Assembly (NCBI RefSeq): GCF_002741075.1
Contig: NZ_CP016634.1
Coordinates: 3,564,001 to 3,628,000, forward strand
DNA length: 64,000 nucleotides
Source of the DNA: Pseudomonas putida
GTDB taxonomy: Bacteria; Pseudomonadota; Gammaproteobacteria; Pseudomonadales; Pseudomonadaceae
Direction of reading: 5' to 3'
Position 1 is the stretch's first letter, and every line of letters begins with the position of its first letter. The translations under genes and the position numbers were made by a program. The notes under the pieces are model-generated. The model worked only from the letters and a program-made list of their open reading frames with translations. It was not told the DNA's origin and did no database searches. Shown here piece by piece: positions 33,818 to 41,257 of the stretch.

Positions 33818-33984
33818 TTTAGAAAATCCTGAAGTAAGTATTTGTCTGTAGCGATTCCTCCCGCCCACTACCTTGCGCAGACTGAGCCCCAATGTCCCTG
33901 CCCGCCGGCGCCTGCTTGCCTGCCTGGCACGCTGCGGCACAGGTTCGAACAAACAGAACAATCGACCGACTGATGAGGCCCACC

Positions 33985-34935
33985 GTGGAAAAGATTCTCC
34001 ACCAACCACTGGGCGGCAACGAAATGCCGCGTTTCGGCGGCATCGCCACCATGCTCCGTCTCCCCCACCTGCAAAGCGCCGAAGGCCTGGACGCCGCGTT
34101 CATTGGCGTACCGCTGGACATCGGCACCTCGCTGCGTTCGGGCACTCGCTTCGGTCCGCGTCAGATCCGCGCCGAGTCGGTGATGATCCGCCCGTACAAC
34201 ATGGCGACCGGCGCCGCCCCGTTCGACTCGCTGTCGGTCGCCGACATCGGTGACGTGGCGATCAACACCTTCAACCTGCTCGACGCCGTGCGCATCATCG
34301 AAGAAGCCTACGACGAAATCCTCGAGCACAACATCATTCCCCTGACCCTCGGTGGCGACCACACCATCACCCTGCCGATCCTGCGCGCGCTGCACAAAAA
34401 GCACGGCAAGATCGGCCTGGTGCATATCGACGCCCACGCCGACGTCAACGATCATATGTTCGGTGAGAAGATCGCCCACGGCACCACCTTCCGCCGTGCG
34501 GTGGAAGAAGGTCTGCTCGACTGCGACCGCGTCGTCCAGATCGGCCTGCGCGCCCAGGGCTACACCGCCGATGATTTCAACTGGAGCCGCCGCCAGGGCT
34601 TCCGCGTCGTGCAGGCCGAAGAGTGCTGGCACAAGTCGCTGGAGCCACTGATGGCCGAAGTGCGCGAGAAGGTCGGTGGCGGCCCAGTCTACCTGTCGTT
34701 CGACATCGACGGCATCGACCCGGCCTGGGCCCCAGGCACCGGTACCCCGGAGATCGGTGGCCTGACCACCATCCAGGCGATGGAGATCATCCGTGGCTGC
34801 CACGGCCTGGACCTGATCGGCTGCGACCTGGTCGAGGTCTCGCCGCCCTACGACACCACCGGCAACACCTCGCTGCTCGGCGCGAACCTGCTGTTCGAGA
34901 TGCTCTGCGTGCTGCCGGGCGTGGTACGCCGCTGA
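33985..34935 (+). CDS. gbuA: guanidinobutyrase (ureohydrolase)
   Basis: GbuA hydrolyses 4-guanidinobutyrate to 4-aminobutyrate and urea, in arginine catabolism by the transaminase or decarboxylase routes. The manganese motifs of the arginase/agmatinase family are all present: LGGDHTITLP, HIDAHADVND and SFDIDGIDPAWAPGTGTPE. The sequence closely follows P. aeruginosa GbuA as I remember it, including HQPLGGNEMPRFGG. I place the start at GTG 33985 (316 aa) because GAGG lies 6 bases before it; ATG 33973 has no ribosome site. Similar genes are often annotated speB (agmatinase). The divergent LysR gene and the downstream symporter support GbuA. Confidence 0.9.
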   Translation: MEKILHQPLGGNEMPRFGGIATMLRLPHLQSAEGLDAAFIGVPLDIGTSLRSGTRFGPRQIRAESVMIRPYNMATGAAPFDSLSVADIGDVAINTFNLLDAVRIIEEAYDEILEHNIIPLTLGGDHTITLPILRALHKKHGKIGLVHIDAHADVNDHMFGEKIAHGTTFRRAVEEGLLDCDRVVQIGLRAQGYTADDFNWSRRQGFRVVQAEECWHKSLEPLMAEVREKVGGGPVYLSFDIDGIDPAWAPGTGTPEIGGLTTIQAMEIIRGCHGLDLIGCDLVEVSPPYDTTGNTSLLGANLLFEMLCVLPGVVRR

Positions 34936-35182: not shown

Positions 35183-36562
35183 ATGGCCTTGGACATCATC
35201 GTTGTACTGATCTATGCCGCCGGCATGCTCGGCCTCGGCTGGTATGGAATGCGCCGCGCGAAAACCCATGAAGACTACCTGGTGGCAGGGCGCAACCTCG
35301 GCCCTACCCTGTACATGGGCACCATGGCCACCACCGTGCTGGGCGGCGCGTCCACCGTCGGCACCGTGCGCCTGGGCTACGTGCACGGCATCTCCGGCTT
35401 CTGGCTGTGCGCCGCCCTGGGCCTGGGGATCATCGCCCTCAACCTGTTCCTGGCAAAGCCGCTGCTGCGCCTGAAGATCTTCACCGTCACCCAGGTGCTG
35501 GAGCGCCGCTACAACCCGATGGCTCGCCAAGCCAGTGCAGCGATCATGCTCGCCTACGCCCTGATGATCGCGGTCACCTCGACCCTGGCCATGGGCACCG
35601 TGCTGCAGGTGCTGCTGGATGTACCGTTCTGGATGGCACTGCTGTTCGGCGGTGGCGTGGTGGTGGTGTACTCGACCATCGGCGGCATGTGGTCGCTGAC
35701 CCTGACCGACATCGTCCAATTCGTCATCAAGACCGTGGGCCTGATGTTCATCCTGCTGCCGATCTGCCTGTACAAGGCCGGTGGCTGGAACACCCTGGTA
35801 GCCAAGCTGCCGGCGGCCAGCTTCAGCTGGACCACCATCGGCTGGGACACCATCATTACCTACTTCCTGATCTACTTCTTCGGCATCCTCATCGGCCAAG
35901 ATATCTGGCAGCGGGTGTTCACCGCCCGTGACGAGAAGGTCTGCCAGCGCGCCGGTACCGTCGCCGGTGTCTACTGCGTGCTGTACGGCCTGGCGTGCGC
36001 CCTGATCGGCATGGCTGCCCACGTGTTGCTGCCTGACCTGGCCAACCCGAACAACGCCTTTGCCGAAATGATCAAAGGTCAATTGCCCGAGGGTATCCGT
36101 GGCCTGCTGATGGCCGCGGCCCTGGCGGCGATGATGTCCACCGCCAGCGCAGGCCTGTTGGCCGCCTCGACCACCCTGACCGAAGACCTGCTGCCCAAAC
36201 TGCGTGGCGGCAAGCAGTCGAGCCTGGGCGTGAACCGCCTGTTCACCCTGATCACCGGTCTGGTGGTACTGGGCATCGCCCTGGCGGTGAACGATGTGAT
36301 CAGCGCCCTGACCCTGGCCTACAACCTGCTGGTCGGCGGCATGCTGATCCCACTGATCGGTGCGATTTTCTGGAAGCGCGCCACCACCGCCGGCGCCATC
36401 ACCAGCATGTCGCTGGGCTTCGTCACCGCACTGCTCTTCATGTTCAAGGATGGTCTGGACGCCAACTCGCCGATCTACTACAGCCTGGCGATCGGCCTGG
36501 TGAGCTTCGTGGTGGTCAGCCTGCTGTCGCGCCGCTCTGTGGCAACCGTCAACCTGGCGTGA
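35183..36562 (+). CDS. sodium:solute symporter family protein
   Basis: This 459-residue SSS-family transporter has about 13 hydrophobic segments. The N terminus ALDIIVVLIYAAGMLGLG, the GRNLGPTLYMGTMATTVLGG region and the STIGGMWSLTLTDIVQF segment are typical. It imports an organic solute with sodium. Placed downstream of gbuA, as PA1418 is near gbuA in P. aeruginosa, it may carry guanidinobutyrate or a related amine; this is inferred from context only. The ribosome site is GGGAG. Confidence 0.9.
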   Translation: MALDIIVVLIYAAGMLGLGWYGMRRAKTHEDYLVAGRNLGPTLYMGTMATTVLGGASTVGTVRLGYVHGISGFWLCAALGLGIIALNLFLAKPLLRLKIFTVTQVLERRYNPMARQASAAIMLAYALMIAVTSTLAMGTVLQVLLDVPFWMALLFGGGVVVVYSTIGGMWSLTLTDIVQFVIKTVGLMFILLPICLYKAGGWNTLVAKLPAASFSWTTIGWDTIITYFLIYFFGILIGQDIWQRVFTARDEKVCQRAGTVAGVYCVLYGLACALIGMAAHVLLPDLANPNNAFAEMIKGQLPEGIRGLLMAAALAAMMSTASAGLLAASTTLTEDLLPKLRGGKQSSLGVNRLFTLITGLVVLGIALAVNDVISALTLAYNLLVGGMLIPLIGAIFWKRATTAGAITSMSLGFVTALLFMFKDGLDANSPIYYSLAIGLVSFVVVSLLSRRSVATVNLA

Positions 36563-36610
36563 TGTAAAGTGAACACTTGGCGCCCCGACGGGCGCCAGGC
36601 AGGAAAAAAG

Positions 36611-36645
36611 AAAGGCCGCGGCATCGTGAGATGCGGCGGCCTTTT
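36611..36645 (-). terminator. strong terminator of the PA1414-like transcript
   Basis: AAAGGCCGC (36611-36619) pairs with GCGGCCTTT (36636-36644), and an inner GCATC/GATGC stem with a GTGA loop continues it. On the minus strand it runs into TTTCTTTTTTCC. It lies 5 bases past the stop codon of the mini-gene at 36650-36778, and could also stop plus-strand transcripts from the symporter. Confidence 0.9.
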
Positions 36646-36649
36646 CGTT

Positions 36650-36778
36650 TCAGCGACGACGCGGTTGGCGCTTGCGCTGCTCTTCGTCGGTTGGGATCGG
36701 TACCGGCTGCAGCGGAGGTGGGAGCAAGCCCAGGGCGACGGCGAGGTCGTGGAGCCAGTTGTACATTCGCTTGTTCAT
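36650..36778 (-). CDS. PA1414-family mini-protein, 42 aa (possible sRNA host)
   Basis: The minus strand encodes MNKRMYNWLHDLAVALGLLP, then a proline-rich stretch and a basic end (KRQPRRR). I recognise this as the PA1414 family, a short protein conserved across Pseudomonas. The start ATG at 36776-36778 has GAAGGGGG 5 bases upstream. In P. aeruginosa the PA1414 transcript is, as I recall, the low-oxygen-induced regulatory RNA SicX. Here the transcript would run from a TATTAT -10 element at 36836-36841 to the strong terminator, roughly 215-220 nt, with an Anr box upstream. Neighbouring symporter and LysR genes match PA1418 and PA1413. The protein has no membrane span. Confidence 0.85.
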   Translation of the reverse strand: MNKRMYNWLHDLAVALGLLPPPLQPVPIPTDEEQRKRQPRRR

Positions 36779-36835
36779 AATGCCCCCTTCACGGGTCAGC
36801 CTCACGGCGATTCAGTCCTTCGATGTTCCATACAG

Positions 36836-36841
36836 ATAATA
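36836..36841 (-). promoter_or_regulatory. -10 element of the PA1414-like gene
   Basis: The minus strand reads TATTAT about 60 bases upstream of the mini-gene ATG. No -35 match is seen at the proper spacing, which fits activator dependence. The centre lies about 61 bases from the centre of the Anr box, putting that box near -71. Confidence 0.55.
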
Positions 36842-36892
36842 GCCCGATGTCCTACATCGCGCATGCCTCTGCTCCTACAGATAGGGGCGAGT

Positions 36893-36906
36893 TTGACGCG
36901 GATCAA
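36893..36906 (-). promoter_or_regulatory. Anr/FNR box
   Basis: The minus strand reads TTGAT-CCGC-GTCAA, a nine-of-ten match to the Anr consensus TTGAT-N4-ATCAA. It overlaps the last codons of the LysR gene and stands upstream of the PA1414-like mini-gene, at a class I distance from the -10 element. Oxygen-limited induction by Anr is expected. Confidence 0.75.
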
Positions 36907-37796
36907 GCGGAAATGGCACTTGCCGACCGTCGGTCAATTGTTTCCCCTTGTTGCACATCGATCCACGCCTGCAGGTTGGCCCCCAGCATGCCCTGGCGCC
37001 ACATCAGCCAGGTGACCGCATGATCGAACGGCGCCTGCAAACGGTGCGCCTGCACCTGGTCACGTCCAGGAAGGGTGTCGAGCATGGACTGGGCCATCAA
37101 TGCCACCCCTGCGCCGGCGATCACACAGGCCAGCATGCTCTGGTACGACTCGATCTCCATCACTCGCCCCATGGGCGTGTGGTCGTGGGCATACCAGGCT
37201 TCCAGACGCATCCGGTAGGAGCACCCTTGACGGAAGGTGAACACCGCACGCCCGGCGACGTCCCGCGCGCTGCGCACCGGCGGATGCTCCGGGCGGGTGA
37301 TCAGCACCAGCACCTCCTCGCACAACGGCACGCCATCGAGCCCGGCCAGGCTCAGCGGGCCGTCCACCAGCGCTGCATCGAGTCGATGGGCCAGCAATCC
37401 TTCCAGCAATTCGCCACTGGGTGCGGCCTGCACTTGCAGATTCACCGCAGGGTAGGCCTGGTGATAACGCGCCAGCAGTGGCGGCAGATGCGTCGCCGCG
37501 GTGCTGTACATGGTGCCGAGCACGAAGTCGCCGGCCGGTTGGCCACCTTGCACCGCAGCGATCGCCTCATCGCGCAAGGTCGACAGGCGATTGGCGTAGT
37601 CCAGCAGGACTTTACCTGCCGGGGACAGTTGCAGGCGCTGGCGCTCACGCACGAACAATTCCACCCCCAGTTGCTCCTCCAACTGACGCAATCGCGTCGA
37701 CAGGTTCGATGGCACCCGGTGCAAACGCTCGGCGGCACGCGTGACCGACCCCTCCTCGGCCACAGCCTGGAAGATGCGCAGTTGGCTGAACTCCAC
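36903..37796 (-). CDS. LysR-family regulator (PA1413-like position)
   Basis: This 297-residue regulator begins (M)EFSQLRIFQAVAEEGSVTRA with the LysR helix-turn-helix at about residues 15-45 and an effector domain after it. GTG at 37794-37796 is chosen because GGAG lies 6 bases before it; TTG four codons upstream has no ribosome site. It is divergent from the YbfB-like transporter, and two overlapping dyads lie between them, so that gene is the probable target. The 3' end overlaps the Anr box. Confidence 0.9.
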   Translation of the reverse strand: MEFSQLRIFQAVAEEGSVTRAAERLHRVPSNLSTRLRQLEEQLGVELFVRERQRLQLSPAGKVLLDYANRLSTLRDEAIAAVQGGQPAGDFVLGTMYSTAATHLPPLLARYHQAYPAVNLQVQAAPSGELLEGLLAHRLDAALVDGPLSLAGLDGVPLCEEVLVLITRPEHPPVRSARDVAGRAVFTFRQGCSYRMRLEAWYAHDHTPMGRVMEIESYQSMLACVIAGAGVALMAQSMLDTLPGRDQVQAHRLQAPFDHAVTWLMWRQGMLGANLQAWIDVQQGETIDRRSASAISA

Positions 37797-37812
37797 AATG
37801 TTCTCCAAAACA

Positions 37813-40668: not shown

Positions 40669-40971
40669 ATGAATAAAATTGAATCAAGCACCTTCAGACA
40701 TTGGCTGAATAACCTCAAGGATGAAATTGGAAAAGCTCGCATCGTTGCGCGCATCAACCGGCTGATCGAAGGCTTACCCGGCGATATCTCGCCGATAGGA
40801 CACGGCGTGAGCGAACTCCGTATCCATTACGGACCTGGTTATCGCGTGTACTTTCATCAAATGGGCGATACGTTACTGATTCTGCTGTGCGCAGGCGATA
40901 AGGGCAGCCAACGTCGCGATATCAAGACGGCCCATCAAATCTTACGGTCGTGGAGGATGCAAAATGACTGA
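40669..40971 (+). CDS. type II toxin, RelE/HigB family
   Basis: The 100-residue basic protein matches the addiction-module killer group (RelE/ParE superfamily, Gp49-like): FRHWLNNLKDEIGKARI, GHGVSELRIHYGPGYRVYFH and the C-terminal LLLCAGDKGSQRRDIKTAH. Such toxins are ribosome-associated mRNA endonucleases. The toxin gene comes first and overlaps the antitoxin by 8 bases, as in HigBA modules. The gene is more AT-rich at its start than the neighbours, hinting at acquisition. Confidence 0.9.
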   Translation: MNKIESSTFRHWLNNLKDEIGKARIVARINRLIEGLPGDISPIGHGVSELRIHYGPGYRVYFHQMGDTLLILLCAGDKGSQRRDIKTAHQILRSWRMQND

Positions 40972-41257
40972 AACGTTCCATGAATTCGATCCTGCGGACT
41001 ACCTCACGACCCCCGAGGCCATTGCAGCCTTCATGACAGATGCCCTCGAAACTGGAGATGCCAGCTACGTCGCCAAAGCCGTCGGTGTCGTGGCTCGCGC
41101 CAAAGGCATGACTGAACTGGCGAGAGAAACAGGGCTATCTCGTGAGCAGCTGTACCGCTCCTTCAGCGAACACGGCAATCCCACCCTCAAGTCGTTCCTG
41201 ACCGTCATGAAGGCGCTCGGCATCGACATGAGTGCACGCCCCCATCCGCCGCCTTGA
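40964..41257 (+). CDS. type II antitoxin, HigA-like
   Basis: The 97-residue protein starts MTETFHEFDPADYLTTPEAI and has a Cro/C1-type helix-turn-helix (MTELARETGLSREQLYRSF). It matches the addiction-module antidote family that partners the toxin just upstream. It should neutralise the toxin and repress the operon through the palindrome at 40643-40660. Confidence 0.9.
   Translation: MTETFHEFDPADYLTTPEAIAAFMTDALETGDASYVAKAVGVVARAKGMTELARETGLSREQLYRSFSEHGNPTLKSFLTVMKALGIDMSARPHPPP

What the first reader, a model, noticed from the sequence alone, without database searches (positions are those of the whole stretch)
36611..36906. Unannotated PA1414/SicX-like mini-gene with Anr box, promoter and terminator
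Between the symporter and a LysR gene the minus strand holds an Anr box (36893-36906), a TATTAT -10 element (36836-36841), a 42-codon frame with a good ribosome site, and an intrinsic terminator with a long U tract. The expected transcript is only about 215-220 nt. The protein belongs to the PA1414 family and the flanking genes match P. aeruginosa. There the transcript is known, as I recall, as the anaerobically induced sRNA SicX. In an environmental, mostly aerobic pseudomonad its targets would be unknown. Such a gene is easily missed by annotation because it is short.
Basis: partly seen in the sequence, partly recalled or inferred. Interest (0 to 1): 0.7.

Follow-up and report, generated by a model that had tools for sequence, protein, structure and literature searches.

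The report
Low-oxygen small-protein gene, not SicX
A tiny gene under a probable oxygen-sensing switch encodes a 42-residue protein that nearly all sampled Pseudomonas share, and it lacks the regulatory RNA (SicX) for which its relative in P. aeruginosa is known.

Summary
In detail: minus-strand Anr box, TATTAT, ribosome site, 42-codon frame, strong terminator. The frame is a PA1414-family protein (NF041729, 77.6 bits, cut-off 28), matched in 289 of 298 genomes of the genus. It evolves as a protein: 74/48/388 differences at codon positions 1/2/3, pN/pS 0.11, as constrained as the neighbouring regulator. In 34 P. putida-like loci the box keeps 57-58 bp to the -10, putting its centre near -70.5. 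SicX itself is not here: the loop GAGAGTGGGACGCCG is exact in 16 of 148 family genomes, all of the P. aeruginosa genus, is absent from this transcript, and ubiU/ubiV, part of the known target, are missing from this genome. In P. aeruginosa PA7 the conserved 44-codon frame lies downstream of the SicX region; a GTG 99 bp upstream opens a frame of exactly 234 bp, the length reported for PA1414. SicX thus looks like a leader-derived RNA on an old small-protein gene; the printed 'no homologues' (PMC10247376) fits its >90% identity threshold.

The parts
36893..36906 (-). Anr/FNR box TTGATCCGCGTCAA, centre 36899.5, inferred -70.5 from the TSS; overlaps the LysR stop codon
   Evidence: 33 of 34 P. putida-like loci
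36836..36841 (-). -10 element TATTAT (TATGAT in the relatives listed); 57-58 bp downstream of the Anr centre in the 34 loci listed
   Evidence: -10 to TSS 0.990 mean pairwise identity
36779..36829 (-). predicted 51-nt leader (TSS inferred at 36829); CCC/GGG mini-hairpin over the ribosome site; lacks the SicX loop
   Evidence: 0.878 mean pairwise identity
36783..36789 (-). Shine-Dalgarno AAGGGGG
   Evidence: alignment
36650..36778 (-). 42-codon PA1414-family small protein MNKRMYNWLHDLAVALGLLPPPLQPVPIPTDEEQRKRQPRRR (coordinates include the stop)
   Evidence: NF041729 77.6 bits; codon selection
36604..36644 (-). intrinsic terminator: stem 36611-36644, then T-rich tract
36903..37808 (-). context, upstream neighbour: LysR-type regulator, PtrR equivalog model (459.7 bits, cut-off 400)
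35183..36562 (+). context, convergent neighbour: sodium/solute symporter-like protein (below the curated cut-offs)

Best explanation
This is a monocistronic small-protein gene, probably induced at low oxygen. Anr, active when oxygen is scarce, binds the box centred near -70.5 and recruits sigma-70 RNA polymerase to a promoter with a good -10 and no good -35 (class-I style activation). A transcript of about 225 nt is translated from an AAGGGGG ribosome site into a 42-residue protein (predicted N-terminal helix, conserved LQP-V/I-P-V/I segment, basic tail) and ends at an intrinsic terminator. The protein, rather than the RNA, is the conserved product; it most likely acts by binding a partner that most Pseudomonas share. 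In the P. aeruginosa genus the same gene carries a longer, structured leader that is the regulatory RNA SicX; that part is absent here. Shown by computation: family, codon selection, fixed box-to--10 spacing, terminator, absence of the SicX loop and of ubiU/ubiV. Inferred: TSS, Anr binding, class-I mode, translation, partner binding (the last at about 0.3).
For: Family match, 34 of 36 genomes of the genus and 289 of 298 (285 over the cut-off). Differences by codon position 74/48/388 over 1,923 codons in 47 disjoint pairs, in-frame pN/pS 0.11 (0.131 over 50 pairs). In 16 disjoint pairs chosen on the LysR neighbour, pN/pS 0.075 for the small protein and 0.097 for LysR. Third codon positions (0.687 identity) are about as variable as the flanks (0.670 upstream, which is the end of the LysR gene; 0.721 downstream, which includes the terminator), so no RNA-level constraint is apparent inside the frame. 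Box-to--10 distance 57-58 bp in the 34 loci listed, one of them with a degenerate box (score 7.75), while box-to-ATG distance is 120-125 bp in the 33 that score at least 8.5. Terminator. UbiU- and UbiV-type hits are missing from this genome and from 32 of the 34 genomes of its genus.
Against: No expression, translation or Anr-binding data. Anr control is not conserved across the family, so it may be peripheral to the protein's role. The leader (0.878) is more conserved than the flanks, so an RNA function of the leader is not excluded. Synonymous divergence is lower than in LysR (pS 0.258 against 0.347; 0.270 against 0.404 in 37 pairs picked on the small protein). One antisense frame also gives a low pN/pS (0.20; 0.38 over all clades), as expected where its wobble positions coincide with the true ones. 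The structure model is weak (mean pLDDT 70.8, pTM 0.31), and the N-terminal helix is not significantly amphipathic in any of 5 members.
Confidence: 0.75

Rival explanations
1. Dual-function RNA: besides coding for the protein, the conserved 51-nt leader (CCGUGAGGCUGACCCGU...AAGGGGG) acts as a base-pairing regulator with a lineage-specific seed, similar in logic to SicX but with other targets.
For: Leader identity 0.878 in the 35-locus alignment, between codon position 3 (0.687) and position 1 (0.908) and above the flanks; in P. aeruginosa the 5' region of this gene is a regulatory RNA (PMC10247376, sections read).
Against: No leader pair predicted by RNAalifold has a change on both sides; the whole transcript folds no better than shuffles; part of the conservation belongs to the ribosome site; no SicX loop.
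Confidence: 0.2
2. A true SicX orthologue that activates ubiUVT translation.
For: Same family, LysR neighbour, Anr box.
Against: SicX loop absent from the transcript and exact only in one genus; no covarying leader structure; ubiU and ubiV not found in this genome.
Confidence: 0.03
3. The Anr box is without function here or serves something else, and the small protein is expressed from the -10 promoter without Anr.
For: No box at the usual place in 84 of 90 P. fluorescens/syringae-like loci and none within 200 bp in 21 of 21 P. stutzeri-like loci (threshold 8.5); a centre at -70.5 is not the commonest Anr position (recalled).
Against: Box in 33 of 34 P. putida-like loci with fixed spacing to the -10, against 1.9% of mononucleotide-shuffled upstream regions reaching that score; no -35 consensus, which fits activator dependence; sicX is Anr-dependent in P. 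aeruginosa (PMC10247376).
Confidence: 0.12

Closest known systems
PA1414 family protein (NCBIfam NF041729; Pfam PF28105 as precomputed label)
   Same: Full-length match, 77.6 bits against a cut-off of 28; core ALGL..PPLQPVPI; LysR neighbour
   Different: PPP where the P. aeruginosa genus has E-PP-R; N-terminal residues 2-6 variable
SicX small RNA of P. aeruginosa (PMC10247376)
   Same: Same gene family and LysR neighbour; Anr box upstream
   Different: No SicX loop; box near -70.5 instead of about -42 (both inferred); leader 51 nt instead of about 110 nt (inferred); ubiU/ubiV absent
5'-UTR-derived and dual-function small RNAs (general kind, recalled)
   Same: In the P. aeruginosa genus the SicX region lies in the leader of the conserved small-protein frame
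   Different: The window's gene shows only the coding half
Class-I FNR/CRP-type promoters (recalled)
   Same: Activator site about 71 bp upstream of the inferred start, fixed spacing
   Different: Not tested by experiment

Membership tests
PA1414 family protein | Score above the curated cut-off over the full profile | tested here: met
   77.6 bits, cut-off 28, residues 1-42 on profile 1-43 of 43
PA1414 family protein | Conserved as a protein (codon selection) | tested here: met
   pN/pS 0.11 in 47 pairs; 0.075 in 16 pairs
PA1414 family protein | LysR gene upstream on the same strand | tested here: met
   32 of 34 P. putida-like loci; in P. aeruginosa sicX is said to lie downstream of the LysR gene PA1413 (PMC10926688, passage)
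SicX small RNA | Anr box upstream | tested here: met
SicX small RNA | Invariant loop GAGAGUGGGA, probable seed (my inference; the paper's seed is in a figure I could not see) | tested here: not met
   absent from the predicted transcript; GAGAGTGGGACGCCG exact in 16 of 148 family genomes, all one genus
SicX small RNA | Two-hairpin 5' region ahead of the conserved frame | tested here: not met
   supported in 19 leaders of the P. aeruginosa genus; no counterpart in 35 P. putida-like loci
SicX small RNA | Target operon ubiUVT in the same genome | tested here: not met
   only two PF01136 hits, in frames of 468 and 672 aa, none of UbiU or UbiV type; ubiT was not searched
SicX small RNA | Short anaerobic transcripts restricted to the 5' region | not testable with these tools
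   needs RNA-seq or northern blot
Anr regulon | Anr-dependent induction at low oxygen | not testable with these tools
   only the site and its spacing could be tested

The most novel reading that the evidence does not exclude
PA1414 is an old small-protein gene of Pseudomonas, and SicX, described in print as an RNA from a PA1414 without homologues elsewhere, is a leader-derived RNA carried by this gene in one genus. In P. aeruginosa PA7 a frame with the reported length of PA1414 starts 33 codons before the conserved ATG, inside the SicX region, so a change of that start codon would leave the conserved 44-residue protein intact; its function is untested. SicX very likely also has targets other than ubiUVT, since its exact loop is kept in 4 genomes without ubiU/ubiV.
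Probability: 0.55. Interest if true: 0.72.

Novelty: new variant of a known kind. Interest (0 to 1): 0.5.

Why it matters
sicX is reported as the most highly expressed P. [quoted passage not shown] These data say that its gene is a small-protein gene found in nearly all sampled Pseudomonas, under codon selection like that of its neighbouring regulator; that the SicX loop belongs to one genus; and that the small protein may never have been tested. Two questions become directly testable in harmless species: what the protein does at low oxygen, and what SicX regulates where ubiUVT is missing.

Tried and rejected
Rfam: 6 hits, all below gathering scores. Pfam (local copy) and PHROGs: no family. 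PDB sequences: none. The AlphaFold model was too weak for a fold search, so none was run. Amphipathic helix: not supported against shuffles in any of 5 members. Plasmid records: no match. RNAduplex of leaders with ubiU 5' regions: uninformative because the program ignores internal folding; PA7 and G689 scored no better than their shuffles (0.755 and 0.670 as good), G015 0.105, G007 0.010; not used as evidence. A six-base match between the PA7 SicX loop (AGUGGG) and CCCACU in its ubiU leader was seen by eye and rests on no statistic. Second gene copy in genome G003: the two lie about 15.4 kb apart across the ends of one contig, probably an assembly overlap. The weak G330 hit lies inside a 679-residue frame and is taken as chance. 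G716 is filed in the P. aeruginosa genus but carries a P. putida-type locus: unexplained, counted as it stands.

In one search, 205 frames of 30-55 residues gave 174 unique CDS; pairs outside pS 0.1-0.6 were dropped. The structure counted came from the same alignment.

Full report
What is there. The terminator folds at -24.2 kcal/mol with z -5.05. In 35 P. putida-like loci 96.7% of the cells of its stem pair, and four pairs have changes on both sides. The simple promoter scan found no sigma-70 consensus and did not list this terminator; the promoter claim rests on the -10, the Anr box and their conservation. The Anr patterns are rare in this 5.85-Mb genome: 17 matches of TTGATNNNNGTCAA and 12 sites of TTGATNNNNATCAA (the consensus is recalled).

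The frame behaves as a protein gene. It matches NCBIfam NF041729, PA1414 family, over its full length at 77.6 bits against a cut-off of 28. The family was matched in 34 of 57 relatives, all of them among the 36 genomes of the same genus; in 289 of 298 genomes of the genus, 285 over the cut-off; in 81 of 148 genomes of the wider family, 80 over the cut-off, and in 11 of its 19 genera; and in 3 of 274 genomes of the class: this genome, one of the same family, and one weak match taken as chance. In 47 disjoint pairs from the own genus 1,923 codons differ at positions 1/2/3 by 74/48/388; pN/pS is 0.11 in frame, 1.89 and 3.42 in the other forward frames, and 1.42, 0.20 and 4.44 in the reverse frames, the 0.20 being the frame whose wobble positions coincide with the true ones. 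Over 84 pairs from all clades the counts are 320/252/820 and the ratio 0.28, with slightly different pairs, gave 0.131 and 0.310. With 16 pairs chosen on the LysR neighbour, the ratio is 0.075 for the small protein and 0.097 for LysR, with pS 0.258 and 0.347. Third codon positions (0.687 identity) are about as variable as the flanks (0.670 and 0.721); the leader (0.878) and the -10-to-TSS stretch (0.990) are conserved.

Promoter. Among 34 distinct P. putida-like upstream regions, 33 hold an Anr-like box scoring at least 8.5 of 10 (29 at least 9), centre 120-125 bp from the ATG; the distance from the best box centre to the -10 is 57 or 58 bp in all 34, including one degenerate box. These loci were mostly found by DNA similarity to the window, which favours conservation. 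With a start inferred 7 bp after the -10 hexamer, the centre is near -70.5, a class-I type position (class recalled). In the P. aeruginosa genus 20 of 20 loci have a box scoring at least 8.5 (none reaches 9) at 146-158 bp from the ATG, and a -10-like TAGTCT or TAAAGT follows about 29-30 bp after its centre, a class-II layout (read by eye). P. resinovorans-like loci have a box in 11 of 13; P. fluorescens/syringae-like loci in 14 of 90, of which 6 lie at 108-123 bp; P. stutzeri-like loci in 0 of 21. Anr control is thus a trait of some lineages, not of the family.

Is it SicX? Of PMC10247376 I saw the abstract and outline, sections 6, 7, 8, 13, 16 and 35 and passages, not its figures or supplement. 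It reports PA1414 as 234 bp, transcripts restricted to the 5' end and encompassing the annotated start codon, function unaffected by a start-codon or frameshift change, a truncated 5' allele as sufficient, ubiUVT as target, and no homologues in other species; orthologues were sought by blastn and kept above 90% identity and coverage. In P. aeruginosa PA7 (L147/L076) the conserved protein has 44 residues (NF041729, 86.1 bits), and a GTG 99 bp upstream of its ATG opens a frame of exactly 234 bp including the stop. I take this as the annotated PA1414 frame; PAO1 and PA14 were not among the sequences that I found. The upstream part of that frame is not kept in the genus: 5 of the 11 leaders printed have an in-frame stop between that place and the ATG. 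So the conserved protein starts downstream of the SicX region, and changing the upstream start codon would not remove it; where the published frameshift lay I could not see.

SicX anatomy. In 19 leaders of the P. aeruginosa genus a long stem closes an invariant loop GAGAGUGGGA and a second hairpin follows: 99.6% of cells paired, five pairs changed on both sides, 0 of 500 shuffles as high, the structure coming from the same alignment. The exact string GAGAGTGGGACGCCG occurs in 16 of 148 family genomes, all of that genus, 17 members of which were among the 148. A hairpin like the second one (GGGTGGCCC...GGGCCACCC) is also seen by eye in several P. resinovorans-like leaders, without the loop, so the second hairpin is not confined to the P. 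aeruginosa genus. The window's transcript has none of the four seed strings tested, and no leader pair of its group covaries.

Target. UbiU- and UbiV-type hits to PF01136 are missing from this genome, which has only hits in frames of 468 and 672 aa (YegQ- and RlhA-type by size and score; names recalled). In one search UbiU-type hits occur in 19 of 25 genomes of the P. aeruginosa genus, 2 of 34 of the window's genus and 0 of 4 of a third. Of the six P. aeruginosa-genus genomes without one, four (G599, G683, G661, G726) keep the exact SicX loop; G716 lacks it and G731 was not among the 148. So the small protein does not depend on ubiUVT, and SicX probably has other targets.

Function. The protein has a predicted N-terminal helix (residues 3-15), a conserved LQP[IV]P[IV] segment and a basic tail, but the model is weak and the helix is not significantly amphipathic. 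I commit to a low-oxygen-induced small protein that works by binding a partner common to Pseudomonas; the partner is unknown, and this step is the least certain (about 0.3).

Literature. Searches for SicX with P. aeruginosa (12 papers, all listed), PA1414 (20 of 32 listed), 'PA1414 family' (none), SicX with small protein (1) and PA14_46160 (3) listed no paper that, from title or start of abstract, treats the conserved small protein or homologues outside P. aeruginosa. Besides PMC10247376, passages were read in PMC12300143 (the matches were other PA14 locus tags), PMC10926688 and PMC12087490. The library lacks most subscription papers.

Mended against the calls: the claim that the two-hairpin leader occurs only in one genus, the way the P. 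putida-like set was picked, the in-frame stops upstream of the conserved ATG, and the distance between the G003 copies.

Noticed in passing
window 40669-40971 (+) and 40964-41257 (+): Overlapping pair matching TIGR02683 (RelE/ParE-family toxin) and TIGR02684 (addiction module antidote), both above cut-off: a type II toxin-antitoxin pair.
   Followed up: partly
window 36903-37808 (-) and 33892-34935 (+): The LysR neighbour matches the putrescine utilization regulator model PtrR (459.7 bits, cut-off 400) and a nearby gene matches agmatinase (TIGR01230, 206.6 bits, cut-off 174.3).
   Followed up: no
L022 and L108 (genome G003): Two copies of the gene about 15.4 kb apart across contig ends, the second with an altered N-terminal frame; probably an assembly overlap.
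   Followed up: partly
   Followed up: no
L006, L013, L017, L034, L050, about 100-125 bp upstream of the ATG: Several P. fluorescens-like loci share a TCAATTCAGTAACAGATCATTGC-like stretch where the Anr box sits in P. putida-like loci: a decayed box or another regulator's site (seen by eye).
   Followed up: no
L077, L085, L028, L110 and L151, leader upstream of the ATG: P. resinovorans-like leaders hold a GGGTGGCCC...GGGCCACCC hairpin like the second SicX hairpin but lack the SicX loop (seen by eye).
   Followed up: no
genomes G599, G683, G661, G726: Exact SicX loop kept although no UbiU- or UbiV-type hit was found.
   Followed up: partly
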